Source of the DNA: Oegoconia quadripuncta
Taxonomy: Eukaryota; Arthropoda; Insecta; Lepidoptera; Autostichidae
Direction of reading: 5' to 3'
Assembly (NCBI GenBank): GCA_949316235.1
Contig: OX438747.1
Coordinates: forward strand, 2,914,501 to 2,978,500
Length of the DNA stretch: 64,000 nucleotides
Shown here: one piece after another, positions 36,287 through 63,500 of the stretch
How positions within the stretch are numbered: position 1 is the first letter of the stretch
Layout of the letters: the number at the start of each line of letters is the position of its first letter
The notes under the pieces: generated by a model
Databases searched by the model: none
What the model was told of the DNA's origin: nothing
What the model saw: the letters and a program-made list of their open reading frames with translations, nothing else
Translations under genes and position numbers: made by a program

Positions 36287-36505
36287 ATGGCTGCTGGCGG
36301 CGAGGAGCTCTGGCGCGAGTGCGCTGGTTGGCTGACGAGATGTGGCTTGCTGCATCCGGACCACAAAGCAAACTGGGAGACGAGTACTATCCACGATCTG
36401 GCATATACCCTGCGCGATGGGGTGCTAATCTGCAACCTTCTCAATGCCCTTCACCCAGGCTGCATAGACATGAAGGACGTGAACCAACGGCCTCAGATGG
36501 CGCAG
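36287..36505 (+). CDS. Vav: Vav coding exon 1 (calponin-homology domain, first half)
   Basis: Seventy-three codons: [85 protein letters not shown] and N.RPQMAQ are Vav-type calponin-homology signatures. The ATG has A at -3 and G at +4, and an in-frame TAG lies upstream at 36266-36268, so the start is well supported. Donor CAG|GTAATT. Confidence 0.96.
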
Positions 36506-39500: not shown

Positions 39501-42500
39501 TAGCATACATCAGCGTAGTCTAGTATGGGGAGAAGAAGGGTTTGTGATAGCATAATTTTAGTTTTTAAAGGAAGGAAGTTCTGAAGTCGCTTAAGAGAGT
39601 GAAAGGTGTAATGCATGCGCCTGCTTACGTCGTTTATATGAGGTGACCACGACAGATGGCCATCAAAGATGGTCATACCAACCCGTTGTGCATAAAAAAA
39701 TAAAACCATCTTATTACATGACAACTAATGTTGTTCATTGGTTACCTTATCTGTGTCTAATAAATAAGCTAATGTATGTGTGTGACTGTGGACACAAATA
39801 AAGGCTATCTATTGACAGTCTATTTTCATTAATTCAGCTGGAGTATACACATACATCTTCAATTCAATGAACTAAGCGCAATTGTTTGGAGGCTGATGTT
39901 TTGCATTCTTTATAGAGCAAAAATGTTGGAGTTGGGTCCGCTTCCTCACAGCCCTATTCCGTACATTCATAGTCTTGTGAAAGTAGTTTGTTATTTGTTG
40001 AGACTTTGCTGTTTCTTCCAAGTACCTAATAGAGCATATTAATAGCCTTATGTCCCCCACTACTGGGGCACAGCCTCCTCTAACTAGTGAAGATTCCCAT
40101 CACCATCCTGGCAAACGTCGGTCACATTTGGAATAGCGTTTAAAGTTTTCACCTCAATCAAAAATAGTGTCCGTTTTCATTGCTAAAAATAATGAATGTA
40201 AAAAATGACTGGTCTGGTCTGGTTGTAGTGTGCGATGAGTATTACAGTACAATTTAGTCAAGTCACAGACAGACATTAACGATTTCATGAAATGCCTAGG
40301 CTGATCGTAATGTACTGCGTGGGACACCTCGATAGTATTCAAAGCAACCTAACTGACCTGTGCTGAGCAGCACAGTTTTCTTTATAGACGAGTGTGACGT
40401 CAAGACATGAGCAATTTTGTGATGGCAACATGTAGCAATAGTGCTAGAGTTACCGTCACTCCATCACTGAGCCACAAGTTGATCAACTAACGCTCGCCAT
40501 GGACGAGGTTTTTTTTCGGTGGAGGTATACTCACGCCGACCGCTCCCGCTAAATCGGACGTAGTTATATGTACGAAAAAATAAATAGTTGACTAAAATTT
40601 ATCACTGGATCCGCCAATTCGACCACAGTGAGCATTATGAACTGTAGTAAGCAATATTACCGAAACAATTGCCGCGCAATATTGAAATTGCTCCATTACC
40701 TCAGGCAACAAAGCAATTATTGTTCAAAGAACAAGATAAGTCTAACCAAAAACCTGAGAGATTTTGTATTTTACGGACACGTCGGTCGGTACGACTCAAA
40801 CGACACCTTGCACTTCAGTCGGTCAAGTCTTTAGGCTTCCGGAGGTAACAGAAATCTACATAAATACACTCGAAAAACATTACCCTTCTGGGTGCAGTCG
40901 GCTAAAAGTTGCCTGAGTAAATGAACCTTTATAACCTATAAACATCGCACTACACGAATCTACTTTAGGCATAAAATTTACGATCACAAATTAGATGTGA
41001 AACTACTAATGCAAAGCAGTATGTCCGACGGGTTCAGTCGCCTTCTCTTGAGTAACACTCTCGACAGACGAGAATTTAGTGGGTGTTTCCAGATGCATTT
41101 TTCTTAATAACGTTTTTTTTTTAATGCGCCAAAAGCAAGACAACCGGCAACACTAGCCTTCGAAATCAACGGTTGCCGTCAAGAGCGGAGATCTAGCCAT
41201 CGAGTCAATGCGGACACCTGTTTGTGTCAGGTCCCAGTCAATCGTACTAATGCTCCTATTTCAGAAGTTTGCTAAAACCATGTCCTCTACTTAACTGTTG
41301 AAAAGGGGTAGATAAATTTAATCTAGCATAATTAAAAATCGAACTAAGTAACCTTTTTTTATTTAGCAAGTAATAGAAATAAATATTCTTGGACATACAG
41401 CGCCATCTAGTTCCACACTAGGCTTGTATTATGGTTACTAGATGGTTGATATACTACACGAATACATGTTTTCTTTTGCAAATGAATATTATTATGCAAA
41501 TTATAAATGCAAACAGCCATAACTCTGGCACACATGTTCACATCATACAAACATATACCCCAAGCGGGATTCGAATCCGCAACTTGGTTTAGAGCGTAGA
41601 ATCTCTACACACTACACCAATCGGTCGCCACACACACATTACAAATAAACGGCGGACATTACTTAAATAATTTATGTAGTTACGAAAATGTCTAAACGTC
41701 ACAGAATTAATTAAACATATAAAAAGTCTAGTTCTGAAACTCTGTAACTCATAGTAGTCCATAAAATTCACTGACATATCAACATTGTCCACAGTTCCTG
41801 TGCATGCGCAACATTAAAGTGTTCCTACGGACATGCCACGAGGTGTTCGAGCTGCGGGAGACGGACCTCTTCGACCCTTCGATGCTCTTCGACCTGTCCA
41901 ACTTCCACCGCGTGTTGTGCACGTTGGCAAAACTCAGCCAATGTACCAAGGCGGTGGCTAAGAGCATCAAGTGAGTATTCAATTTCTATATTTCGAAGAA
42001 ATCTATATCAATGTTAGTACAGATTATTATTGCTTATTACTATTAGAGATGAGCCGAGTACTCGGTATCCACTTGGTACTCGGCATATTCGGCGTTTTTT
42101 TGATACCGAATAACTCGGTTCAAGTGACGAGTTTAACAGATATAGTGAAAACAGTTTATTAATGAAATAAAAAAGAAACAACTCATATCAACTATAATTT
42201 ACTACTTCTTTGTTTTTGCATCATGTTGTGGCGTTCATAATAAACTACAGTTCTCATTCATCTCAGATCAGCTTTGCATTTGTGTGAGTGCACACAGATA
42301 GAGATACGGCTTGTGGCGCAGCGCGTCCCGCGCATTGTTTAAACGCGGCCTGAGGCGCGGCGTGTCCGCTGCGCGTCGCTTCCCTGCCGCGCACATGCCG
42401 CACTTCACCTCTTGTACCGCTAGCAGCTTGACGTCACTCACACAAATGCAAAGCTGAGCTTACGCCTCGAGAACTGTATTCTTATATTTTAACTTTAGCT

Positions 42501-45500: not shown

Positions 45501-48500
45501 GCCCAATGCGGATTCGGGACTTCACATGCCGTAGAATTTTATTTCTCAGGCATGCAGGTTTCGATCGCCGTTTAAGAGCAGTCAGATAAATACACATAAG
45601 TAATTAAATTAAATTTAAAAACTCATTGGTACATGTCCTGCCTGGGAATCGAACCCGGACCTCCCAAATTGGGAGACCGCGTCTTAACCTCAGCGCTCAG
45701 ACAGACGCTCTCTTACTAATAATACTTGGTAGCAATTCTGGGAACAGGCCAATTCGGCCGCTATAGAATGTAGAGTTCAGTTCAGAATCATCTACTCTAC
45801 AAACCTTTAAAGTTTCATTCAATTTGGGAGTTCGGGTTCACACCCTTCACTTGTAAGTTCACAACACGTTGGTTTTATATATCGGATGTTTGTTTTTGCA
45901 GACCCTTCTCGGCTCACAGGACGCAGTCGGAAGAGGACATTTACAAAGACTTGCAGTCTGTGTAAGTATTATACCTGTATAAATACTATGTATTCATTGC
46001 AATAACTTGAAGGATATTTCAATCTTACCAGAATTTACATTAAACATCCGATGTCCTGCGCAATTTACTGCGCAACCGCTCTAGATCTCTAGTATCTATC
46101 ACTCTCTAACACACCACGGTTGATAATAGTGCGAGCGACCCACTCACCACGTGACAGAAATTCAGTCTGTAAAATTTCCGATCCCTGCTGTAGTTCAATA
46201 GCAGTCACTCTCTAACACACCACGGTTGCTAGTAGTCCGAGCGTGTCGCTCGAAGCGTCGCAGTACAGAGCAATCGACATGGCTGAGCCAGAAACGGAAT
46301 TCCCCCTCGTGCAGTACACGATCCCTGCTGTAGTTCTCTATTATCTGTCACTGTCACACACCACGGTTGCTAGTAGTCCGAGCGTGTCGCTCGACGCGTC
46401 GCAGTACAGAGCAACCGGCATGGGTGAGCCAGAAACGGAATTCCCGTTGGTGCAGTACACTACCCCTGCTGTAGTTCTCTACTATCTGTCACTCTCTAAC
46501 ACACCACGGTTGCTAGTAGTCCGAGCGTGTCGCTCGACGCGTCGCAGTACTGAGCAACCGACATGGCTGAGCCAGAAACGGAATTCCCGTTGGTGCAGTA
46601 CACTACCCCTGCTGTAGTTCTCTACTATCTGTCACTCTCTAACACACCACGGTTGCTAGTAGTCCGAGCGTGTCGCTCAACGCGTCGCAGTACTGAGCAA
46701 CCGACATGGCTGAGCCAGAAACGGAATTCCCGCTGGTGCAGTACACGATCGCTGCTGTAGTTCTCTACTATCTGTCACTCTCTAACACACCACGGTTGCT
46801 AGTAGTCCGAGCATGTCGCTCGACGCGTCGCAGTACAGAGCAATCGACATGGCTGAGCCAGAAACGGAATTCCCGCTGGTGCAATACACGATCCCTGCTG
46901 TAGTTCTCTACTATCTGTCACTAGTAGTCCGAGTGTGTCGTTCGACGCGTCGCAGTACAGAGCAACCGACATGGCTGACCCAGAAACGGAATTCTCGCTG
47001 GTGCAGTACACGATCCCTGCTGTAGTTCTCTACTATCTGTCACTCTCTAACACACCACGGTTGATAATAGTGCGAGCAAACCGCTCAACACGTGACAGAA
47101 ATTCAGTCTGTAGTATTCCCGATGCCTGCTATAGTTCTATAGTATCTATCACTCTCTAACACACCACGGTTGCTAGTAGTCCGAGCGTGTCGTTCGACGC
47201 GTCGCAGTACTGAGCAACCGACATGGCTGATCCAGAAACGGAATTCCCGCTCGTGCAGTACACGATTCCTGCTGTAGTTCTCTATTATCTGTCACTCTCT
47301 AACACACCACGTTTGATAATAGTGCGAGCGACCCACTCAACACGTGACAGAAATTCAGTCCGTAAAATTCCCGATCTCTGCTGTAGTTGTGTAATATCTA
47401 TCACTCTCTAACACACCACGGTTGCTAGTAGTGCGAGCGTGTCGCTCGACGCGCCGCAGTACAGCGCGGCCGACTTGGCGGAGCCCGAAACGGAAGTCCC
47501 GTGGGTGCAGTTCACTATCCCGAGCGCTACATGCGAGGACCGCGTCGAGGAGATCTATGAGGACCTCTGCTATGTCAAGTTCACATCGGCCACGCCGGAG
47601 GTTGTTTGGGGATGAGGGGATCGAAGCTTGTGATGTTCTTTATTTCGTATTAAACAGTTTATAATAAAATATATTTTTATGCACTACAATGTTAGGTGAT
47701 GATGAGGCCTGAAGTTAAAAGCGCTTACCCAAAACCCCCAACTAGTCGAGATGCCGCATGGCTATCTTATCTTAAACAGCCTGATAAATAATGTAATTGC
47801 TGCGGGCGGCAGACTTACACTAGATCACAGACATCTACTTGACTCAACGGAGTATCAAAAATGAGGAGTGCGAATCTATTATAAATTTTATGACGATTAT
47901 TTTTAACTGACTTGTATAATTAATCGTCGTTATCGGGTTCGAATCCCGCTGGGGGTATATGTTTGTGTGATGAATACGGACATGTGTACCCGAGTTATGG
48001 ATGTTTTCATTTATAATAAGTATTTTTTTACAAAAAAAAATGTATTTATGTAGTATATCAACCATCTGGTATCCACAACACAAGCCTTTAGTTGCTTACT
48101 GTGGAACTAGATGGCGCTGTGTATATGTCTAAGGATATTTATTTATTTAATGCAACCTAATTGAGTTTAAGCTCGGTTAATTTGTCTTCAGAAGCAGTCT
48201 GATCGTAGGTGGTATACAGAATCCGAACTCTGTGGTTCGATAAAACATGATTAAACAAAAAATACAATGCCAATGGAGTCATACAAAGTTTTACAATATA
48301 TGACGTCTATTGCACTAAAAAGTATAAGGAAAGAACATGGTGATACTTCCAGTATCCAAAGTAGGTAATAATACTTTACCTTGTATTTTGACCCTGGTGT
48401 CTCCCCTGCCTTACTGTTAAGGATGATCAAAACAGACGAAATAAAATGAAGACATCCTTGCTGCATATTAAACAAGCAAGTTCTGCGTATATCTACCTAA

Positions 48501-51500
48501 CAACTACTGAAACGATTAATGAATGACTGTAATGTTAGAAAGGCTGTTAACCCCAGCAGTGGGAACATAATGGTTAGTCTATTGCAAATATGAAATAAAC
48601 AGAAATAGCAGTGACCGAAATATGCTCACGTTATCTGTTGGTCGAAGCGGCTCCTCGCAGAGCGGCTATCGATTCTGAGAAACGTTTCAACTCGCCTACA
48701 AGACGAACCCTTATGACGTCATTCTTTATCACTCTCTGGCCGTACCCGACGTGATCTACCTAACATAGTGATATGATAAGCCATACTTATAGGTACTCAA
48801 GCACTCGATATTTCTGAGAAATATCTAAATATGTAGGTAAATCACGATAACACTGTGTTTATTTGTGTTTTTGGTAGTAAAGTGAAGAAGAACAATCAAA
48901 AATTAAAGCCGTGTGCGATACTGTCTAATTATCTAACATAGGTATTACTGCAAATGTAAACTTTCTCATAAACCTATACTAACTTGTTGACATAGATTTA
49001 CATTGGCGTTTGGTCTAATGAGTAGACCCTGCCTTCGAAACCACGGTTGCGGGTTCGAATCGCTGGGTGGATGCAGGTGCAGTGTGCATTGGTAGATTTG
49101 TCTGACTATTGACCAGTGGGCAGTCTAAAATATTCAATATACCCCTGTAGGCCACACCACTGGCTTTAATTAAAAACAAACGAGAACTAGTGTTTAGCGC
49201 GCCTTCCAAAGCACGGAAACACTTGTATGTAAATGCCACTAGTGATCACCGATTTAAGGACTTCTTCTTTTGAATCCAGGAAATTTTCAAATTTTATTGA
49301 ACCAAATCTAGGACTAGGAGCGTCATATAAAGATCACATCAAAACAACACTAGCAAAAAATATTATTACAAAATTAGTGACTAGCTGAATGAGAAGATAG
49401 ATAGATAGATAAAGCGTTTATTAGCATATTACAGAAACACATACAAAAATATTCGACGCAATAATCATTCTGCTTGGTGTTATTCTTACGAAATGTAGCC
49501 TTCTTTCACAGTAATAAAAATAAAAACAAAAATTAAGTACAACTGTTGCAACTTATAGAGTTGTATGTGTATCTGTACCATAAATGGGCCATCGCTCAGT
49601 GTGGATCCTCACCTATAGCGGTAAGACACTGATTTTCAGCTAGTGCCCGGCGAGAGAAAGCGAGGGTAGGGTACCCGTGCAAAAATTTTCAATAACAACC
49701 ATAAGTGTGTATTCTATAAAGATCATGTTGTACGGTGGTGTATAGTAATTGTATGGGTCATAATGATACTCGTTTAAAATAATAATTGTCAAAAGTAGGC
49801 TTCACATTACAAAAAAAATACCCACTACGCTAACGAATCAAGATGTCTGTGAGCAGTTACCGCTAAGCTATTCGAAATGTTGCAAATCATTTCATTTTCC
49901 TGCCCTTATCCCACTCTAAGTGGGGTCGGCACAACATGTCATCCTCTTCCACTCTCCTCTATCAGCCGTCATCTCCGTACTCACCCCTTTCACATACATA
50001 TCATTCCTCACGCAATCTACCCACACCTTCTTTGGTCTTCCTCTACCTCTGTATCCCTCCACATTTATACTTAACACTCGTCTTGTTACGTGCCCTTCAT
50101 CCCTCCTCATAATGTGCCCAAGCCATGCTAACCTATTACTCCTCAGCTTTTCTGTTATTGGCGCCACTTTTAGACTTCCTCTGATATACTCATTCCTGAT
50201 CTTATCCATTCTAGTCACACCACACATCCATCTTAGCATTCTCATCTCTGCCACATGCATTCTACTTTCATCAGTTTCTTTCATTGCCCAACATTCAGAT
50301 CCATACATGGTGACAGGTCTTATGATGGTTTTATAAATTTTGCCCTTGAGTTTCAGGGGCATTCGTGGGTCACATGTAGTCCCAGAAACCTGTCGCCATT
50401 TCATCCATCCTGCAGTTACTGCAAATGCTTTCGGAATATTCATCTTTTGTATTTCTAGCAGATGTGCTTTAATTAGCTTCTTAAAAGAAAATTTAGATGT
50501 TACAAGAATAAATAGATCAACCTGGTCTACTTGTGCCAGCTCTTAAAAATGATAAAATTGTATTTTACGTTAAAAAAAAGTAAGAACAATGATCCTGTGG
50601 GTTTATTGCGCCTCTTTTCTTCCCACTGATGTTTTCCCTTTCCGAAACGCTACTTGGACCTACTGACTGACAGATAAATGCAATAAGCTCTATTATTATT
50701 TCCAGTAGATTTTAATTGACATGCAACAAATGATTCTGTCTGTCTTATGTTGAATTAAATGCTTGAAGTTTGTGATGACTTCGCTAATGAAAAAAGGAAC
50801 AACGAATACGCCACGAGTGCTTCCAAGTACATTTGTGATATTTATATTTACCTGTTGAAAGACAAGGTAAAAATATTTATTTATAATGTAATAAATATCC
50901 CTGTTAGGTAGGTGTTAGGACTGTTTAAGATAAGATAACCTGCGACCTCAAAGAGCCTCATCTTCACTTAACTTCAGTGTGAAAACTGTTGCGGTATTAC
51001 AAGCTATGATAGAGTCATCATCAATCAAATGATTTTTTTTTAACCTTTTTTTCATTTGAGGCTTTTAAAATAGATAGAAGCCAATAACACACATATTTCA
51101 TGTGTAAGTATTTTACTTATCTTTTGGTGATGCCTGTTTTCGGTGCATTTCAGCAAGGAGGAAATTATAAACACAATTTTAATGCATTTAAGAATTGAAA
51201 TAAAGAACGCATTTGCTTCGAAATTTAATTCATCATTTGGGGGTTCATCATAAACCACTTATCGTAGTGGGGTAGTAGTAGTGTGACAATGTGCCTGAGA
51301 GTTTTATTAAATACCCACATTTCTAGAGTCGCAACACACTGCAAAGGTCGTAAAATTAGACCTTTTAATATTAGAATCTAGAAACTGGACTGGAATAAGG
51401 ACATTACTCACTGTACCTAAAGACTTCAAAATATTGAAAGATATTTCCTAACTACAACAGTGATGAACATCATTCTCATCTCCCTCGCCCCGCCTTCGTA

Positions 51501-54500
51501 GTTGAAGCGTTACTATTGGCAGAAATTGATAGTTGGCGAAAGTTTATTACCATTGGAGTAAAGAAATATTTTTTAATGAAATTTTGAACTCTTTACAGTG
51601 ACGATCTTCCACGTAGTTTTCTGAATGAAGAAAAGAAATTACAACAATAATTATAATGACGACATTTTGTTGTCCCCTTGCGTTAAAACGTCACACCATG
51701 AAAAAAATGAGATGTCATTTTAAATTAGTAAGGGTTCTAGTGTCGCCGTTTTTAAGCCTAGCGCTCTGATTGCCGCGCACATACAAGTGAAATATCACGT
51801 ACAGCAACGAAGCCCGTTTTTAAGGTCTCTGCTTTTTGGGGGCCTTATTTAACGAATTTATTTTTCAACTCTCACGCACATTCTCTGTTAACTAGTCATT
51901 CTATAGTTGTTTGACGTGTAGACTAGATTAGAAATTTATTGTTAGCACTATTGGAACTTATGATTTGCTTTAAATGAATGGTTTTTTTTATAGGTTTAAC
52001 TTAACCGTATGCTGATATTTTCGCTGTTTATTTTGTTATTTTTAGTTTGACTCATGTACATATTGTTATCCCTTATCAATCTGATTGTATTATTCTTGAT
52101 TTTTTTTTGTGTGCTGTTATCACGCATGATAGTCAGGTGCGGACGCAACGGTGAGGTATTCTGATTGGACAAAATACTGAATTAGTTTGGAATCCCGATG
52201 TGAAAGGCGTGGAAAACTAAAGATTTATTTACTAAAGTTACGCACACTGAAAGCGAAGCGATGCGGCAAGTGTGACTTCGTTGATACATCTCTTGTAATG
52301 CGACACACATGCTCGCACTGACATAAATGCCATATAAATACAGTAGTTTTCGCGCTCCTAGAATTTGTTTATCCCGCGAGAACTACTCACTTTGTCGGGA
52401 TAAGTATCCTATGACGTATTCCAGGGCATATTCTACCTATAAGTCAAATTTCGGTCAAAGTCAAAATCAAAGTCAAATCGGAGTGAACATCTCCAGTAGC
52501 GTTCAATTCCGCGGTCATCTGGAGGATAAGGCCAAGTTGGCCTCCAAAAAGTTAGGTGTCCTCAGTAGAGCGGCTCGTTACTTCACGCCGGCTCACCGCC
52601 TCCAACTTTATAAGGCGCAAGTTCGGCCGCACGTGGAGTATTGTTCTCACCTATGGGCTGGGGCACCTCAGTACCAGCTTCTTCCTTTTGACCGCGTTCA
52701 ACGTCGCGCAGTCCGAATTGTCGGCCAAGAGAGTCTCACCGAGCGACTGGATCCCCTGGCGTTGCGAAGAGACGTCGCGTCCCTCTGCATTCTCTATCGC
52801 ATATTTCATGGGGAGTGTTCTGAAGAACTGTTCGAGCTAATACCCGCTGCTCAATTTAACCGATACACTTCTCGGAGAAAATTAAATTTCCATCCACATC
52901 ACCTGGATGAGTGGAAGTCTACCACTGTACGTTTCTCAAGAAATTTCTTGCCACGTACGACCACCCTGTGGAACGGACTTCCGGCAGCGGTATTCCCGAA
53001 CGAGTACGACATTGGAACCTTCAAGAAGCGAGCCTACACCTTCCTCAAAGGCCGGCAACGCATCTGTGACCCTTTTGGTGTTGCGGGTGTCCATGGGCGG
53101 CGGTGATTACTTTCCATCAGGTGACCCGCATGCTCGTTTGCCGCTCTCTCATATAAAAAAAAAAAAAAAAAATTTCATCTAAATCCTGTTATCCATATTG
53201 CCATGATTGAACATAAAACAAACATCCAAACTTTTACATTTATAATATTTGTTGGATAGCTATAGAGCCGAACTGAATATGTCCTCCCTAACATGTGTGC
53301 GCTTAAATACAACGCGATTTCGCATCTCTTGCCCCCCGCTTCGCTGTCGGTGTGACGAAGGCGTAACGATACTGGCTTGATAACAAATTCAAAATTGCAG
53401 TTCTATTTAGAAAGATGTTATCAGATGTGCTAGCATCATTTCACACAGAGCACGTACGACCTAGGTAATATGTATGATGGCCATTTGTCGCTAAGTACGT
53501 GCGCTTCGAGGGTACTTATGCAAAAGTTCTTTACCCGTGCGCTCAAAAAGGCAATCCCTGACTATGAGAAATAGGTAATTACTCCAACAGACGTTAATTT
53601 AACACCACTATGGGCACGGTATTAAATCATTCGGTGACGAGGGCTATCCAATCAGAGGTTAACTATCAGGCGGACCATTTGTCGCATAGAATTAGATAGG
53701 GCCAATCAGAATCCCTCGAGCCGTTGCGCACGCGTCTGATTGGCCCGGCTCGCAGCGGTGGCGCCAGCGCGCCGGCGGCCGACGTGGGTGAGTACGCGAG
53801 CTACTGCGCGCGCATTCACGACGAGGAGATCTACCACGACCTCTGCGCGGTCAAGGCCGTCGCAAGGGACCCCCCGCTGCCGTTGCACCCCCCCGCTTTC
53901 AATACAGTATGCTGCGCTTATTATTTTTCTTATTTTTTTTTTAAGTTTTTGGCTTGGTGATTGATGTTGACGCGTTTGTTTAGAACCTGCAAATCCTAGC
54001 TATATGAACGAATTACTTTGGTATTTACATATTATTACTATTAAAGCTCGTATTGTTATGAATGTTAATTATAGTGCGTATGCGTCATTGATGGCAGCAG
54101 GTGCTATGATCAAAAGTTTTTGCTCCCTAGTGTACAAAAAACTTTCAATGAGTCGGAGAAAGTCTTATTGGCGAGAATGCGGGGAGTGATGTTATGTTTT
54201 TTTTAATATTTGCTGCAAGTTATGTATTTCGAATATTGATGTGTAAGAAATGCAGAATATTGTGCAACAAAACTCAATTATTATTTACAACTGAATGATT
54301 TAGTTTGCAAACAGTGACCTAAGTCATTAATTTGTAAGCTATTATATGTATATATAATAGTGTTAACTTTCGTGGCACGTTGAATTCCCAAAATTTACGC
54401 TTATATTTTGAAATCTTGAGCAAGTTTATAGTCGATGAAACATTTATTAATACATCGACGACAAGTTCTTAATCCTAAGATCTGTAGCGTCAGTAACGCA

Positions 54501-57500
54501 TTCTCAGTGACTTTATTATTTATTATAGTAACATTATAGTGAACCTTTAGTGAATATAGAGCTTTAACATCTTTCACATTTTTAAAGGAAAAGTTTGAAA
54601 AGAGAAGTATTAAATTGTACTCTTACCACCTTTCTGAAACTGTATTTTCTATTTCTAATGTGCAATAAAGTGCGTTTGTATTGTATTATAGCTACTTCAT
54701 CGTATACCAATACATACAGAGTGTAGAGTCCTGACTACAGATTCGACTACAAAGGACACCGGGCTTTATACGATACTCCATCTTTTTTTTTTCAGTTTTG
54801 CCGTGAAATTGTAAGAATTTTTCTGTTGAAATGGTTTACGCAATATTTGTAATATTTGATCGCGCATCCGAAGTACATTTTATAGCAGAGGTTAGATTTC
54901 GAGATGCAACGCATAGCGCTTTGGTCGAATACCGAATGTTCGGAAGCGCTCACGACTGTGGCCAATCTAACAAAGTTTGTTAAAATTTATCTATCATCAC
55001 CTTGCTGTAATGCGTAAAGTGAGAGACTATTTTCTGAGACAATACAAAGATTATTTAGTGTATAAAATAATTTACAATACATTTTAATGATAACATAGAA
55101 CAAAAGTTATCTTAACTTATCATTAAAACTGGTCTCTTCCAACTATGAGAAATTTGTAGACCGTAAAACCGTAAAAAAAATGACAACGTGTTTACGAGAA
55201 AAACAGTATTGTCTGCTACCAGCAAATGCAGTAAAACGGGGTTTTGTTCACCACAATTTCGCATTGATTCATATTAAATAACGTAATACTATTATAATAA
55301 ATACAACGTTTTAGTAATTTCAATATTGAGAAAGTTGTAGTCTGAATTTGCCGAATAGTGGCCAAATATTTGTTGCACATCTCTAAGGTCCACTTTCTTC
55401 CACTTGTTCAATATTTTTGTCCAAGATTTGGCATAGTCTCGAGAAAATGGAGGAACGTGGAGCGACTTTACGTACTGCTATTAATCATTAGATTATTATT
55501 AAAAAAGAAAAAAAGCGAAACAAATAAAATTTGGGTGAAGCCATGGTCCGAAGGCGAAGAGAAAATTGCAATTGTCCACGAAATCTTACTTGCAGCCATT
55601 TTGTTTCAAATGTCATTAATCTGTGATCAAAATCGGTGATACTAGAATATTTGATTAAACTGTCCAATTTCTTTGATCAAAAGATATTTGGCAAGTGTAA
55701 TACCACCCTAATTTGAATGTTACAAAATTTTCTTTTTACTCGATTGCGGAAGAAAGCGAATTAGGTAGAGCAATGTTTTCTTGATGTAACTTTTATAAAC
55801 TATCGCGTCAGGGAATTTCACGCTTCGTTTGAAACCGAATACTTCGCGGAAAAAAAAAGAAATTCGACGCGACATTCCGAGCGTCCACTGAATTATTCAT
55901 ATTTCTCTTTCCAAACGTAACCATAGTTCTAATCAGTACTTTATAACATTTGCCATTGTTTTGTTTTTCCTTATTTTGTTTTTACATGAATAATTAATTG
56001 CACGAGTTCAAATTGTTATAGTTTTGCCTGATCAGAATATTTATGCTTGTGACTCGAAAACTAGTAAGACCCTTAGAGAGCCTACTTATTTGGTCAGTTT
56101 AGTCTTTTACGATTTAACAGGATAAAGTACAATGAAGTTAGATCCTTTATTTAGTTTATAGGTACAATCGGATTCATAAGTGCATATTCAGATCCAGACA
56201 TTTTATAAATAAGTTTATCCGTTATCTAGTATCCATATTACAAGTTATGCTTAGGTTGGGACTACACAGGGTGAAATTTAATCCCTGTAATTTCTGTTTA
56301 CTGGTGATTCCACTTCTAATTACGAACAACTTTCTCCAAGGAACCATAGTTGATTTCGATGAAAAAATTTTCGATAACCCATTCAAATTAAACCATTCTG
56401 CAACCACCTTTAGTATGGAAGGCCAACAATTTTCGGCTGAATTAACTATGGTTCCTAGTGGATAGTTGTTCTTAATCAGGAGTGGAGTCACCAGTTAATG
56501 GGAATTACTTATTTTACTTACTTACTAGTACTACTTAGAATTACACGAATTCAAATTCACCCTGTAGATGTTTAGTGTAATGTCCGAGAGTTTACCGTCT
56601 TATTCATAAAAAAATTCCAAACGCTTTATAAGCCTGTTTTAGTTAAAGTTTGTTTTGTCTCTGTCGTTCATAAGGAAATGTTGTAATGACAGAAAGTGAC
56701 AAAGCATACTTTAACTAAAACAGGCTTATAAACGGTTTGTAAATGTTAAAAAAAAAAACAAACACGCATACACACATACACACACACAAACTTTCGCATT
56801 TATAATATTAGTGTGCAGTGTGATTTTTTTTTAATTTATTTATTCTTTAGGTTATTTAGATCTGGCACTGGATATGCACTTATGACCATGTCACTTTTCA
56901 GTCGGGTTAATTAAAGTAAATTGTATAAGGTCTGTCACAGCGGCTACGTATTACGACATCACTCATGTACATATTCAATCAGTGATGTATATATCACACT
57001 TCATAATTGGTTGCTTATCACTGATATAATACAAATGAGACACGATGTGTGTAATAGCGTTTGCACTGCGACTGGGCCTGACAAGTTTGTATACACTTTA
57101 TTGTACAGTCGAGCGCACAAAAGACGCAAAATTTCAACCTTTGTACAGTCCGGTCGTTGTATGAACGCGCTACCGTACATGAGCGCAGTTTTTACTGGCA
57201 GTGTTACACTGTACAAAAGAATAAAATACAACATTAGGAATACACAAAATAAGTACAAAGGCGAACTTATCCTATATTGCAATGTTGCCAGCATGTAGGC
57301 TGCCTGCATTTAAATATTCTGGTCAAGCTTAATGCCTTCATCTGAAAGCAAGTAGCGCGGTGTGATAGCGCTTTGTATTCTATGGAGGTTTACGACGTCG
57401 AGTGTGGAGAGGACAAAATAGTCTGCACAATTCCTATGTCATAATTTCAGCGTTCTGATTAGTGTATCCCTCTTCTTCTCAAAGTGTATTCATATTCATT

Positions 57501-60500
57501 TATTTATTGCCAAGAACATGGGTACAAACATTATAGAATAGGTGAGAGGGGTTAAACAAAGATCAAAAAACATTGTCAAAATTAAAAAAAAAAATGTCAA
57601 ATATCAATTAAATGTCAGAAATATGTCAGTGTATGTACCTCTCGCCTAATCGTTTTCTACGATATCAGCTACTCGCAGTACTTTGGTAATATGAAATTTG
57701 ACAACTACCACCGATCGTTTGATCTGACTGACAGCTGTCAGTGAGCCGATAGTTGTCTATGATATCTTCTCAATGTAAGGATAAAAGAATTGTTACACAC
57801 CTCCATGGAGTAACAACGCGATGTCGCACCGCTTTTATGGCGCCAGCAAATCTTTTTTATGCCAGAATTATTATTTATTTTTTTCTAATATTTTCAGCTA
57901 GCAACATCGTCGCACAGCCTAGAGAAGAGGGACTACGTAATACGGGAGCTAGTTGACACAGAGTGTAATTATGTTGATGTACTAAGCAAAATCATCAAGT
58001 ACTTCTTGAGGCCTCTAACGCCGTATTTGAAGCCGCAGGATCTGCAGCTCATATTCTTTGGCATAAAGGTGAGTTCCAACAACAGGAATTTATTTTTATT
58101 TTTTTATTAAAACTGGTTTCGCGTTTGACTACAATCTCACCTGATGGAAAGTGACGATGTAGCCGAAGATGTATCACGCGCACCCAGTAAATGCCTATTC
58201 ACTCTAGACTTGAAGATCCCAAGGTTGTAAGTGTCGGGAAAAACCGACGCGGGCGGTGAGTTCCATACCTTAGCAGTCCGCATTATAAATGATGAAGCAA
58301 AGCGCTTAGTGCGGATGTTCAGTATGTTGACAACATATGGATGGAAACCCTCCCCGCGCCTGGTTGTCCGAAGAATTTTAATAGTAGATTGTTGCATCGA
58401 GTATATAAATCAAATAATGCAAGCTGCCTTTCTTTCAACTACAACAAAGAAGCATTTTATAAAATGAAATTTGCACGCACAGGAACCGCCTTAGTATTAC
58501 GTGGGTAGTTTTTTTTTTTCATTCAATTCTAGAAGATGTCTGTCGCTGTCACAGCGAGAAACCAGGGATTGCTAATAATTTGAAGGGCTTTAGGCTACAA
58601 GTTTTTTAATCAAACTTTTTGTAATTATGTTCGTCCGACTTCTTGAAATAAAAAATAACAATAATAAGTCGGTTAAATATATGTATAGATATTTATATAA
58701 ACATCCATGATTTGTTCGTTTTCACCACACAAACATTTACCACTCGCGGGATTCGAATCCACAACTGTTGGTTTCGTTGACAGTCACTAACCACTACACG
58801 AATCGGTCGTCAATGGTGTCGATTCGGATGTGCACCAACTAAACTAAAACCAGTTTTGGAGTGGTGCCGTCGCATCGTACTGTTCCAGGGAGAAAGAGAC
58901 AGTACTACTCTAAAACTGGTTTTAGTTTAGTTTAGTTGGTGTACATCCGAATCGACACCGTTCTATTCTGATGAATAATCACCATCCACCATCTTCTTTT
59001 GCGCAATTTCTTTTTAGCCCTCTACTTTGCTGTACATTTAGGTAATATTTAAACATACTTCTATAAATAAATTGTAAGAGAATCCACGTCCATCGTTATC
59101 AAGAGCCAATGCAGAATGATCAGTACGCTAATGTGTAAACAGCGACTTTCGGATTCGATATTTTGGCCCAATGTGTACAGCGGCCTTTAGAATTGTCAAG
59201 ATTGTCAAAGTGTTGGGGTTTCCGGTGTCAATACGCTTCCACCTTCGACCTCATCTTCACTTATCATCAGGCGTGATTGAGGTCAAGTACAAACCCGTTG
59301 TGCATAAAAAAAAAATGTGGGGGCCTAGTTATTGGTTATATTAAGAATAACGCTTCAATGAAGTCGCTAATAGCGTAACACTGTTCACAGGAACTCCACG
59401 AGATCCACTCCGGCCTACTGCGGCAGCTGAAGCTGGCGACGGAGGCATGCGTGCCTGGCAGCGGCGCGCCCCGTCTCGCCGACGTGTTCCTGACGTGGCG
59501 CGAGCGGTTGCTGCTCTACGGCGACTACTGCTCAAACCTCACCCAGGGACAGGACACGCTCAAGACCCTGGACGCGAGGGACAATACCTTCAACAAACAA
59601 TTAGCTGTAAGTCAATTTTTTTTTTCATATGTAATATTTACACTTGAAAATAGTGTGTTGAAGCTACCAGGCGTTCGAAATTTACAGCCCTCCTTTGAGA
59701 AGAAGCCCAAGAAACTTTAAAGGTTGTACTTTTTATATGTTCGATAGAAATACTTTATTAATACATACATTTATCTTCATCTACACATAACATATATAGT
59801 CTTATATTTATCAAAGTCAAAGTTGCTTTATTTTGTAGGTATACAGGGTACATTTACTTACTTAAAATAGTCACTTTAACATTTTTTAAGTTACTGCTTG
59901 TTCAAAATGCTATTTTTCTCTGCGAAGAACAAGCAAGAAACTTGAAAACTTGCTCTTTTAAAAACAGGTTTTTTATTACTTAAAGGTTTTTATATTTAAT
60001 AAATATATAATAAATAAATATCTTTGCACATACACACAGCACCATCCAGTTCCACACTAAGTAACTAGGCTTGTGTTATGGATACCAGATGGTTGATAAA
60101 CTACACAAATACATTTCTTTTTGTAAATAAATACATAAATAAACGAAAAACATCCATAACTCGGGAACACATGTCTGTATTCATCATACAAACATATGCC
60201 CCTAGCGGGATTCGAACCCGCGACTTTTTGGTATAGCAGTCAGAATTTTTAAAATTTTCATCTTTTTTTTTTTTATGATTAACTGGATTCGCGTTCGACC
60301 ACAATCTCACCTGATGGAAAGTGACGATGTGGTCGGAGATGAAGCACGCGATCTCAGTAAATGCCTATTCACTCTGCTCTTGAAGATCCCAAGGTTGTAG
60401 GATTCAGGGTAGACTGACGCCGGAAGGGATTTCCATGCCTTGGCTGTTCGGATGATGAATGATGAATCGAACTTCATCTCGGGTGACATAAACGTTTATC

Positions 60501-63500
60501 GCGCCCGTAATGCTCCTAGTATATGTAGAGTGATGTAGCTAGGACAGTACAGCGCTGAGGTCGGTGTCGCAGGCCGTGGTCTTTGCCTCACTTAGACTAT
60601 GGCCCGTATTAATAAAACATTCTCAAGATTGGGAACAGTCTTGTGACTGGTCTCAATTAAACGTGTTGATTAATAAACCTAACTTGAGATCTGAAATGCG
60701 TGTGCTTACTCAAGCAGTACTTACTTGAGAGTTTCACGTATTAATAAACGGAACTCAAGACTATCATTCCTTCGCCGCTGAGGCGAATACTTGAGAAGTG
60801 ATCTGACCTCAAGATTGGTTTATAAATTAGCACGGAGCTTGAGATAGCGTCAACTTCTTAAGACGCATCTCGGGTGATACAGCCTCAAGACTTGTATTGA
60901 GATTGGTTTATCAATACGGGCCTAAGACAAACTAACCTAACGTCCACCCGCTAATTATGGGGTGTTGTTCCAGAAATGTCAGAAGGAGCACAGCGACGGT
61001 CGGATACAGTTACGCGACATCCTCTCGGTGCCTATGCAGAGGGTGCTCAAATATCATCTCTTGCTCGACAAATTAGTGCATGAGACACAACCGGTGAGTT
61101 AATATTTATGACACTTGCATTTCCTACTTAGCAGTACGATGTAGATAGATATTTAGAATAGATTCACTTGGGAATGGGAGGATAGACGCACATATAAATT
61201 TTACAGATAAACTTTAAGTGATAAAATGATATGTCTATGTAATCTAATATTTAACTTTGACTAAAGCTTACATGATAGCTTATGTACTGTTAGTGTATGT
61301 TGTGATTAAATGAATTGGAATTGGAACATATAATGTCACGACTTTTATTCTAAGCGGAGCACCCAATTGGGATAAAGATCGTGACATTATGTGTAATAAT
61401 AATAAATAAAACGTTTATTTTGAGTTTCTTTTAGAGTTACTAATTTCACACACTTCTACCAAACTATAAATAGTTTATGGGCAGAAATATGTTCTGCCTA
61501 CTCCCTTGATTTTAATATTCTTACCGTCTTATTCATAAAAAATTGCAAACGCTTTATAAGCCTGTTTTAGTTAAAGTATGTTTTGTCGCTATCGTTCATA
61601 AGGAAATGTTGCAATGAAAGAAAGTGACAAAACATACTTTAACTAAAACACGCTTATAAAGCGTTTGTAAATTTTTATGAATAAGAGGGTTACAATGTAA
61701 TTGTAACACATTCTTTATACTTTTGTGAATTTCACAGTATTACGAGTATGCATGGTAAATGGAACATAAACATTAAGTGCTTCGTTTCATATATATTTAC
61801 AAGCATGATTTGTTAAACTTTTCTAACAGGAACTTTTTTATTTTAGTCTTAAATGATTTAGTGTATGTTGATATGTTAAAATTCTTTTCTCCTCAAGATT
61901 GCCATTGAAAATGCTTATGAGAGGGAAGCACCAGATATTTGTGCGTTGAAGTTGATGGTGGTTGGTGGTTGACGGTGTACGGGCGGTGTAATGAAATTTA
62001 TGAATTCCGCTTCCAACTGCGAACGTTGAGGAAAATTTAGATATTGTCAGACGTCTATTTGTAGAAAACCAGAGATATCCCAGACATAAACGCTTGGGTG
62101 GTCCAAAATATTAAAACTTTAGTGCTTGAAATACCATCCAATCCTTCCTTTTGAAATATACAGAAATGCACAATGAGAGAGGTGAGCCCATCGCCGTTGA
62201 CACGTGCAAATGTTTTATGGTGGAAAGGTCCACAGTCTTCATTTACCACATGGACGGGAACAGACTTGGATCTATTCTTTTTACGTGTCGAGTCTACACG
62301 GCACCTATAAGAAACATGTGCCGTGCCGTTACATTTAATCTATCAATGTATATTTATTCATATGAAGTACAATAAAGCGTTTACAAACAAACATGGTGCC
62401 ACCCCTCCTGTGGGATTGTCTAGTGCTGATTGGTGTATTTGTGAAAGACCACTGACCTTGACAGACTTTGCTCAACTTCCCTAAACCTAAGTGGCTTTTA
62501 TGGGTATTGCTTGTGTATTTTATGTCACACATTTTCATTTATTTATCCACTTAGATTAAGAGCGTTTATTCCGTCCAGTGGCGCCCTCTTTGGATAAATT
62601 AAGACTTCTTTTTGAATACAGAATAATTAAAAAAAAATCGCTCTGACCTGCACTCGAGAAGGTAGAACAGCTTATTGTAAATAATACATAAATAGTATTA
62701 ATTACGGTCATTTTCGAGAATTTCAAATTTTTTATAAAAACCGACAATTTTTTTATAATCGTAAATTCTGGAAAATAACCTCCATCAAAACTATTTAGGT
62801 ATTATTAATTAGCTTTTAGGCCTCCCGAATGCAGGTCAGGGCGATTTTTTTGATTTATTCTATATTTAAAGAGAAGTTTTAATTTATCCAATGAGGGCGC
62901 ACTGGACGGAATGAGCCCTCTTAAGATTCTTTTGTTTCTTACTGCGTGCAAATTGTAACACTAATTATGTTTAAAATTGCTCAGGTCACTAATATGAGTG
63001 TGAATGAAAATAAGGAGTATTTCAATTTTTTTTTATGCACTACGGGTTGGTACTTGACCTCAATTACACCTGATGTTAAGTGAAGATTTCAATGCGACCA
63101 CGTCACTATTACTTAAAATTATACTTGTGAACTCGAAACAAAATGTGGGGGTTTTATATGTTGTATGGTTTATTTTAGAATCACGAAGAGTTCCGAGGGC
63201 TGGAGCGAGCGAAAGAGGCGATGGTTGATGTGGCCCAATATATAAATGAGGTGAAAAGGGATAGCGAAGTGTTGGCGCTGTTGTCCAAAGTACAGGTACG
63301 TACTACTTAAGCCGGGTCTCCTGCATGTGTTTTATTGAAATATTACACATAAAACAATACACAAAAACATTTGTTTTCAAACACATGCCTCCTCCTTCCA
63401 AATATGTTGTTCCTGCACAAAACATTCTTTTGACATCAAAAAGAGTTTTGACGAGGAAGGTTGTGTTTAGAATTTCCGCACAGATTCCAAGCTAGCTCGA

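What the first reader, a model, noticed from the sequence alone, without database searches (positions are those of the whole stretch)
47429..53906. Two Vav exons that appear to be obligate mutually exclusive alternatives, swapping the autoinhibitory tyrosine segment
Seen: exon 4a (47429-47600) and exon 4b (53756-53906) both take a phase-2 entry from exon 3 and leave in phase 0 to exon 5. Both carry the same motif, [11 protein letters not shown] versus [11 protein letters not shown]. If both are used, 4b is read one base out of frame and meets TGA after 11 codons (...GRRRG then TGA). If both are skipped, exon 3 (ending GT) joins exon 5 (starting CTAG) and makes GTC TAG, an immediate stop. So exactly one must be included. 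Known: this tyrosine packs on the DH domain and its phosphorylation opens Vav. Inferred: the two isoforms could differ in kinase preference or autoinhibition. I know of no description of such a Vav switch, but could not search.
Basis: partly seen in the sequence, partly recalled or inferred. Interest (0 to 1): 0.88.

Follow-up and report, generated by a model that had tools for sequence, protein, structure and literature searches.

The report
Alternative tyrosine exons of insect Vav
In this moth or butterfly gene, and in other insects looked at, the signalling protein Vav can be made with one or the other of two alternative exons that carry its self-inhibiting tyrosine, and only one of the two exons brings an extra nearby tyrosine.

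Summary
Exons 4a (47429-47600) and 4b (53756-53906) share entry phase 2 and exit phase 0. Using both reaches TGA after 11 codons of 4b; skipping both gives GTC TAG. Of 108 Vav proteins found, 48 carry a 4a-type exon, 50 a 4b-type, 5 are hybrid gene models and 5 neither by my motifs. Both types occur in Lepidoptera, Hymenoptera and Blattodea, and in Coleoptera if one hybrid model is counted. Annotated isoforms of one species, one per type, lie on contigs of equal length in four insects. So this is an old pair of mutually exclusive exons. Inferred function: splicing chooses between two and three inhibitory-region tyrosines and so sets the activation threshold. AlphaFold models do not settle this, and no RNA reads were available. 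Ten searches of open-access papers listed no description of it.

The parts
36287..36505 (+). Vav exon 1, start codon and first half of CH domain
   Evidence: tblastn to insect Vav and reading; Pfam CH 5.2e-17 on the joined protein
41795..41970 (+). Vav exon 2, second half of CH domain
45902..45961 (+). Vav exon 3, carries EEDIYKDL (Vav1 Tyr142-type site), ends in phase 2 (GT)
   Evidence: the same stretch of relative P0053 aligns with DEDIYSGL of Vav1
46179..47428 (+). Intronic tandem array (unit about 143 bp) made of copies of the 4a acceptor region and 5' part of 4a, 82-90% identical to it; six extra 4a-like acceptors, each meeting a stop before 47600
47429..47600 (+). Exon 4a: [27 protein letters not shown]; one core tyrosine, no Tyr160-type tyrosine; weak donor GAG|GTTGTT
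   Evidence: relatives in 17 contig-predicted proteins and 48 of 108 Vav proteins
53699..53746 (+). Possible hairpin (12-bp perfect stem GGGCCAATCAGA/TCTGATTGGCCC) ending 9 nt upstream of exon 4b
   Evidence: z -1.8 for 53690-53765, -0.46 for 53620-53765; suggestive only
53756..53906 (+). Exon 4b: [23 protein letters not shown]; core tyrosine plus tyrosines 13 and 10 residues before it; weak donor ACA|GTATGC
   Evidence: relatives in 50 of 108 Vav proteins
57898..58068 (+). Exon 5, start of DH (RhoGEF) domain
59391..59606 (+). Exon 6, DH domain
60974..61093 (+). Exon 7, DH domain
63179..63295 (+). Exon 8, end of DH domain
63899..64000 (+). Exon 9, start of the PH part, cut by the window end

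Best explanation
Exons 4a and 4b are a pair of alternative, mutually exclusive exons of insect Vav, kept since at least the common ancestor of cockroaches, wasps and moths (shown by sequence). The reading frame enforces it: both or neither gives an early stop, so such mRNAs would make no full-length Vav and are probably degraded (frame shown, decay inferred). Each exon supplies the tyrosine corresponding to Vav1 Tyr174, which sits in the DH active site and shuts off GTPase exchange until phosphorylated (established for Vav1; inferred here). 4b also supplies a Tyr160-type tyrosine; 4a replaces that stretch by a tyrosine-free segment with F-T-I (shown). The most likely effect is that 4b Vav is inhibited and opened through three acidic-region tyrosines and 4a Vav through two, so that cells set the threshold, or the choice of kinase and SH2 partner, by splicing (inferred). 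The confidence given is for the mutually exclusive pair; I give about 0.45 to the tyrosine-number mechanism.
For: Frame logic. 48/50/5/5 split of 108 proteins, with no direct 4a-4b join among them. Same-species isoforms on contigs of identical length: Periplaneta X6 (4a) and X2 (4b), Dufourea X3 (4a) and X1/X2 (4b), Hylaeus anthracinus X2 (4a) and X1 (4b), Nylanderia X2 (4a) and X1 (4b). 4a before 4b in one gene model in Eumeta, Operophtera, Lamprigera and Ooceraea. Whole or near-whole proteins on 3.2-3.4 kb contigs, hence from spliced RNA: P0072 (4a), P0085 (4b). Mean identity to the window over the core: 4a 92% in 20 of 20 and 4b 88% in 15 of 15 lepidopteran proteins given; exon 5 as a yardstick 95% and 87%; whole exons 71% and 64%. 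Both donors have the fewest matches to CAG|GTAAGT of the nine seen in the gene, 5 and 4 of 9 against 6-8. Tyrosine toggle 50 of 50 versus 0 of 48. Vav1 Tyr142/160/174 roles: PMC6562523 (passages and the section on regulation) and PMC6767298 (one passage).
Against: No RNA reads of this species were available. Isoform labels in public records are largely automatic predictions (general knowledge). In the list only 1 whole 4a-type protein lies on a contig under 7 kb (P0072) against 9 of the 4b type, so direct transcript support for 4a is thin. No lepidopteran species is listed with both forms as separate entries; clustering at 90% identity would merge them, but I could not check. Hemiptera, Trichoptera and a flea gave only 4b-type, so 4a may be lost there or was missed. 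In the window the 4a donor is weak and its acceptor lies at the end of a tandem array, so 4a could be decaying in this species. AlphaFold gives pLDDT under 50 for nearly all of the swapped segment in both isoforms, so docking on the DH domain is untested. The Tyr160 equivalence rests on spacing (13 versus 14 residues); the phmmer alignment puts Vav1 Tyr160 two residues from the insect tyrosine. Four of 50 4b-type proteins have their upstream tyrosine at other spacings.
Confidence: 0.92

Rival explanations
1. The pair is mutually exclusive in other insects, but in this particular species 4a is a decaying exon: its 5' half and acceptor were caught up in a tandem array and its donor is very weak, so mostly 4b is used.
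For: Array of 143-bp units like the 4a 5' part, with six extra acceptors that all lead to stops; donor GAG|GTTGTT, 5 of 9 consensus matches.
Against: The 4a frame is intact and its core is 79-100% identical to 20 of 20 lepidopteran 4a-type proteins. The 4b donor is weaker still by the same count, and 8 of 16 pyrimidines before the 4a acceptor is no fewer than at exons 7 and 9. In 16 of 17 contig-predicted 4a relatives the frame reads V straight after PE, in 12 of 17 V-A, so a donor GTN-GCN of non-consensus kind is usual (inferred from protein).
Confidence: 0.12
2. The exons are mutually exclusive but functionally equivalent: both provide the Tyr174-type lock, and the choice only follows tissue-specific splicing without changing Vav regulation.
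For: Both keep the core tyrosine motif; the Tyr142-type tyrosine of exon 3 is kept with either (position 146 invariant in 48 4a-type and at least 90% in 49 4b-type proteins).
Against: The upstream halves are distinct and each is kept across orders: F-T-I type in 47 of 48 4a-type proteins (partly circular, since this motif was used to assign the class), tyrosine at -13 in 46 of 50 4b-type proteins (not used to assign the class). Neutral equivalents would be expected to drift or be lost.
Confidence: 0.2
3. The 4b exon has its own promoter as well: a CCAAT-rich, GC-rich stretch just upstream gives transcripts starting near 4b that lack the CH domain, and the exon choice follows promoter choice.
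For: CCAAT-type boxes in both orientations near 53648, 53703 and 53738; three gene models start at or just upstream of 4b (P0076, P0084, P0086).
Against: The other 47 of 50 4b-type proteins carry sequence from upstream exons; the three models may be fragments; no start-site data.
Confidence: 0.05

Closest known systems
Vertebrate Vav1 acidic region (Tyr142, Tyr160, Tyr174), PDB 3ky9 and 6nf1
   Same: Same gene family and order CH-acidic-DH-PH; the exon 3 tyrosine of relatives P0053 and P0062 aligns with Tyr142, the 4a core tyrosine (P0062) and 4b core tyrosine (P0053) with Tyr174.
   Different: The review PMC6562523 says Tyr142/160/174 are already present in choanozoans; the passages I saw name later losses of other sites only, and the text has no occurrence of 'splic', 'isoform' or 'exon'. 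In insects the Tyr174 exon comes in two forms, one without a Tyr160-type tyrosine.
Mutually exclusive exons of arthropods (Dscam1, Mhc, 14-3-3 zeta, N-cadherin)
   Same: Neighbouring exons, same phases, shared sequence, exactly one used; criteria as in PMC3923563 (passages seen). N-cadherin from a search listing.
   Different: Here the swapped piece is a regulatory tyrosine segment that is probably unstructured outside the lock helix (low pLDDT) rather than part of a folded domain; no clear RNA pairing between introns was found, in one genome.
Drosophila Vav
   Same: Vav gene studied through one isoform, isoform C (PMC9388202, passages seen).
   Different: That text has 0 occurrences of 'exon' and 'splic'. 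My recalled Drosophila sequence reads as 4b-type; whether flies keep 4a was not tested.

Membership tests
Vav family RhoGEF | N-terminal CH domain followed by DH (RhoGEF) domain | tested here: met
   Joined window protein: CH 5.2e-17, RhoGEF 3.2e-39
Vav family RhoGEF | PH, C1, SH2 and SH3 domains after DH | tested here: inconclusive
   Window ends inside the PH part; full-length relatives P0062 and P0053 have PH, C1, SH2 and one SH3 position
Vav family RhoGEF | Autoinhibitory tyrosine (Tyr174 type) before the DH domain | tested here: met
   By alignment: window 4a, relatives with 4b and 4a. The inhibitory action itself was not tested
Mutually exclusive exon pair | Same splice phases and frame preservation with either exon | tested here: met
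Mutually exclusive exon pair | Both or neither disrupts the frame | tested here: met
Mutually exclusive exon pair | Sequence homology and similar length | tested here: met
   172 and 151 nt; 17 columns aligned, probability 94%; only the core is alike
Mutually exclusive exon pair | Transcripts contain exactly one of the two | tested here: inconclusive
   Public proteins fit: 98 of 108 carry exactly one, 5 are hybrid models, 5 neither by the motif test; no read-level junction data
RNA-pairing controlled exon choice (docking/selector type) | Conserved complementary intronic elements | tested here: inconclusive
   16 inverted pairs in 45900-58000, none that I could read as pairing the flanks of both exons; one genome, so conservation not testable

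The most novel reading that the evidence does not exclude
An ancient, perhaps hexapod-wide splicing switch sets how many inhibitory-region tyrosines Vav carries (three with 4b, two with 4a) and so its activation threshold and signalling branch. Collembola may already have it: Orchesella shows a 4b-like exon (EEDIYQDLCYID) and Folsomia isoform X2 a 4a-like one (EESIYEELCYITF) (Folsomia was scored 'neither' by my motif, and its reading as 4a-like is by eye).
Probability: 0.33. Interest if true: 0.8.

Novelty: new member of a known kind. Interest (0 to 1): 0.64.

Why it matters
Vav is a textbook case of a GEF held shut by tyrosines and opened by phosphorylation, and the number of phosphorylated sites is reported to select different signalling branches (PMC6562523, section read). 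An old splice pair that removes one of those sites while keeping the core lock is a natural experiment on what the second tyrosine does. It also means that insect work on a single Vav isoform may miss half of the regulation, and it gives comparative genomics a case of mutually exclusive exons in a regulatory tyrosine segment.

Tried and rejected
Chance match or pseudo-exon for 4a: rejected, because 17 contig-predicted proteins encode it at 61-85% identity and 48 of 108 Vav proteins contain it. Recent duplication within Lepidoptera: rejected, because 4a-type exons occur in a cockroach, a cricket, a beetle model and many Hymenoptera. 4a as an artefact of the tandem array: rejected for the exon (relatives have it), though the array seems derived from it. 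Spliceosome incompatibility (U2/U12) or steric closeness as the cause of exclusivity: the splice sites listed are GT-AG and the exons are 6 kb apart, so frame and regulation are left. RNA pairing between introns: nothing convincing. Structure prediction: nearly all of the swapped segment is under pLDDT 50 in both isoform models; a helix at 165-184 in 4b against 195-202 in 4a is not reliable. A first count of tyrosines used too short a window and gave 45 at -13; one search corrects it to 46.

Reports in print: ten paper searches. In the titles and abstract beginnings listed I saw none describing this pair. Four lists were capped (20 of 28, 20 of 89, 20 of 53 and 15 of 336 papers); the others were complete (0 to 7 papers). 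Opened: PMC6562523 (passages and one section), PMC6767298, PMC9388202, PMC12475976 and PMC3923563 (passages only). The library leaves out most subscription journals, and supplementary tables could not be read.
Full report
What was checked. Exon 3 (45902-45961) ends in GT; 4a (47429-47600, 172 nt) and 4b (53756-53906, 151 nt) each complete that codon as valine and end on a codon boundary; exon 5 starts at 57898 (in one search I first set exon 5 one base late, corrected). 3-4a-5 and 3-4b-5 stay open to the window end in exon 9. 3-4a-4b stops after 11 codons of 4b and 3-5 stops at once. The joined protein matches CH and RhoGEF domains. By sequence it is Vav: window exons 3-4a-5-6 match Vav1 chains best, and the full-length relatives P0053 (4b) and P0062 (4a) align with Vav1 3ky9 and 6nf1.

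More than chance. In six frames of 64 kb the motif [DE]x[IVL]Yx[DE]L occurs three times: exon 3, 4a and 4b. A DNA pattern made from the two exons is expected 0.00 times and found twice. The 4a and 4b profiles, 11 segments each, align over 17 columns at 94% probability.

4b is the ordinary exon. A search with 3-4b-5-6 found 4b in five unnamed contigs that look lepidopteran (P0028-P0032) and the like in a named hemipteran Vav, P0003. A search aimed at 4a found 17 further proteins predicted from unnamed contigs, 61-85% identical, with the core QFTIP...[11 protein letters not shown] or close to it; all 17 read on past PE into what looks like intron, 16 of them with V next and 12 with V-A.

Both forms in longer proteins. 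A third search with a query holding both exons returned 108 Vav proteins. By motif and by eye on the segment before the DH domain (P0133 moved from 4a to the hybrids after reading it): 48 have 4a only, 50 have 4b only, 5 hold both or a hybrid (P0050 Eumeta, P0065 Operophtera, P0092 Lamprigera, P0101 Ooceraea, P0133 Frieseomelitta) and 5 neither (P0078, P0126, P0155, P0156, P0157). Some are partial proteins or automatic gene models. In all five hybrids the 4a part is followed by residues not seen in the single-exon proteins, as expected if a gene predictor had to run through intron to avoid the frame break. P0155 (Leptidea) joins exon 3 to exon 5 in a poor model that also lacks much of the DH domain. 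P0156 (Folsomia) is 'neither' by my motif but its EESIYEELCYITF looks 4a-like.

Spread, with orders assigned from my own knowledge of the names. Both types: Lepidoptera, Hymenoptera, Blattodea (Periplaneta), and Coleoptera if the Lamprigera hybrid is counted. Only 4a: the one orthopteran (Gryllus). Only 4b: the hemipterans (Clastoptera, Lycorma, Daktulosphaira, Cinara, Acyrthosiphon), the caddisfly Arctopsyche, the flea Ctenocephalides. Clustering and the word-based search mean that absence here is weak evidence.

Same gene, both forms. Periplaneta americana isoforms X6 (4a) and X2 (4b) are reported on contigs of the same length, 181,716,009; so are Dufourea X3 and X1/X2 (1,496,261), Hylaeus anthracinus X2 and X1 (18,359,903) and Nylanderia X2 and X1 (3,717,731). 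The hybrid models put 4a before 4b in two moths, a beetle and an ant, the order seen here. In Lepidoptera the two isoforms differ in about 50 of 800 residues, so the 90% clustering of the database would merge them; this may be why no lepidopteran species is listed with both. P0072 (813 aa on a 3449-base contig, 4a) and P0085 (794 aa on 3252 bases, 4b, start of the protein missing) leave no room for introns, so they should come from spliced RNA. By that yardstick (contig under 7 kb) the list holds 1 of the 4a type and 9 of the 4b type.

What differs. Each of the 50 4b-type proteins has a tyrosine 7-15 residues before the core tyrosine, 46 of them at exactly 13; the other four (P0125, P0152, P0153, P0154) have it at 7-15. 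Of 48 4a-type proteins none has a tyrosine within 20 residues before it and one (P0090) has it at 23 (which corrects). In Vav1 the matching pair is Tyr160 and Tyr174, 14 apart (read from the alignment). 4a instead has an F-T-I type stretch in 47 of 48 (all but P0128); this count is partly circular because the motif helped to assign the class. The exon 3 tyrosine of the Tyr142 type is invariant in the 48 4a-type and at least 90% conserved in the 49 4b-type proteins aligned. Reviews give Tyr142, Tyr160 and Tyr174 as the acidic-region sites that open Vav (PMC6562523, section on regulation read; PMC6767298, one passage). PMC6562523 also says that these sites are present in choanozoans and contains no occurrence of 'splic', 'isoform' or 'exon'.

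Mechanism, shown and inferred. Shown: alternative exons, frame exclusivity, deep conservation, the tyrosine difference. Inferred: faulty mRNAs are degraded; both core tyrosines lock the DH site; 4b needs an additional phosphorylation step or offers an additional SH2 docking site. The predicted structures do not help: residues 138-220 (4a model) and nearly all of 138-207 (4b model) have pLDDT under 50.

Control of the choice. The two donors have the fewest consensus matches of nine in the gene (5 and 4 of 9, the others 6-8), as is common for regulated exons. A 12-bp hairpin ends 9 nt before 4b (z -1.8, and only -0.46 for a longer stretch). Inverted repeats linking the introns are unconvincing. 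In this species intron 3 holds a 143-bp tandem array like the start of 4a and its acceptor; six extra acceptors all lead to stops, so their use would make dead transcripts.

Verdict. A real, old mutually exclusive exon pair in Vav, apparently undescribed. 'Undescribed' rests on the ten searches of open-access papers listed under Tried and rejected, four of them with capped lists, and not on subscription journals or supplements; automatic isoform names for it do exist in public records.

Noticed in passing
46179-47521: 143-bp tandem array in intron 3 whose units are like the acceptor and 5' part of exon 4a, 82-90% identical to it; six extra acceptor-like sites, each meeting a stop codon before 47600.
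   Followed up: partly
47425-47431: Tandem acceptor ctagtag at exon 4a; relatives show both products (QSVSASV and QSVASV types, for example P0054 against P0055 and P0067 against P0070), so one serine may be optional.
   Followed up: partly
52327-53172: 259-residue ORF that looks to me (recall, not searched) like the end of a non-LTR reverse transcriptase, followed by a poly-A run: probably a retroelement remnant between 4a and 4b. A similar ORF lies at 49916-50542 on the minus strand.
   Followed up: no
53648-53746: Three CCAAT-type boxes in both orientations in a GC-rich stretch just before exon 4b; two of them form the hairpin arms. Could be promoter-like or a repeat remnant.
   Followed up: no
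P0062, P0053 (full-length moth relatives): Only one SH3 position is matched, at the C terminus, fitting the remark in PMC6562523 that arthropod Vav can lack the N-terminal SH3; a short insert (LLSSQ) in the PH region is present in some moths and absent in others.
   Followed up: no
P0063 (812 aa): Listed without source or name, which the tool says marks a protein encoded by the window; yet it is 91% identical to my joined 4a isoform over 457 columns, not identical. It may stand for a cluster that holds the window's own protein.
   Followed up: no
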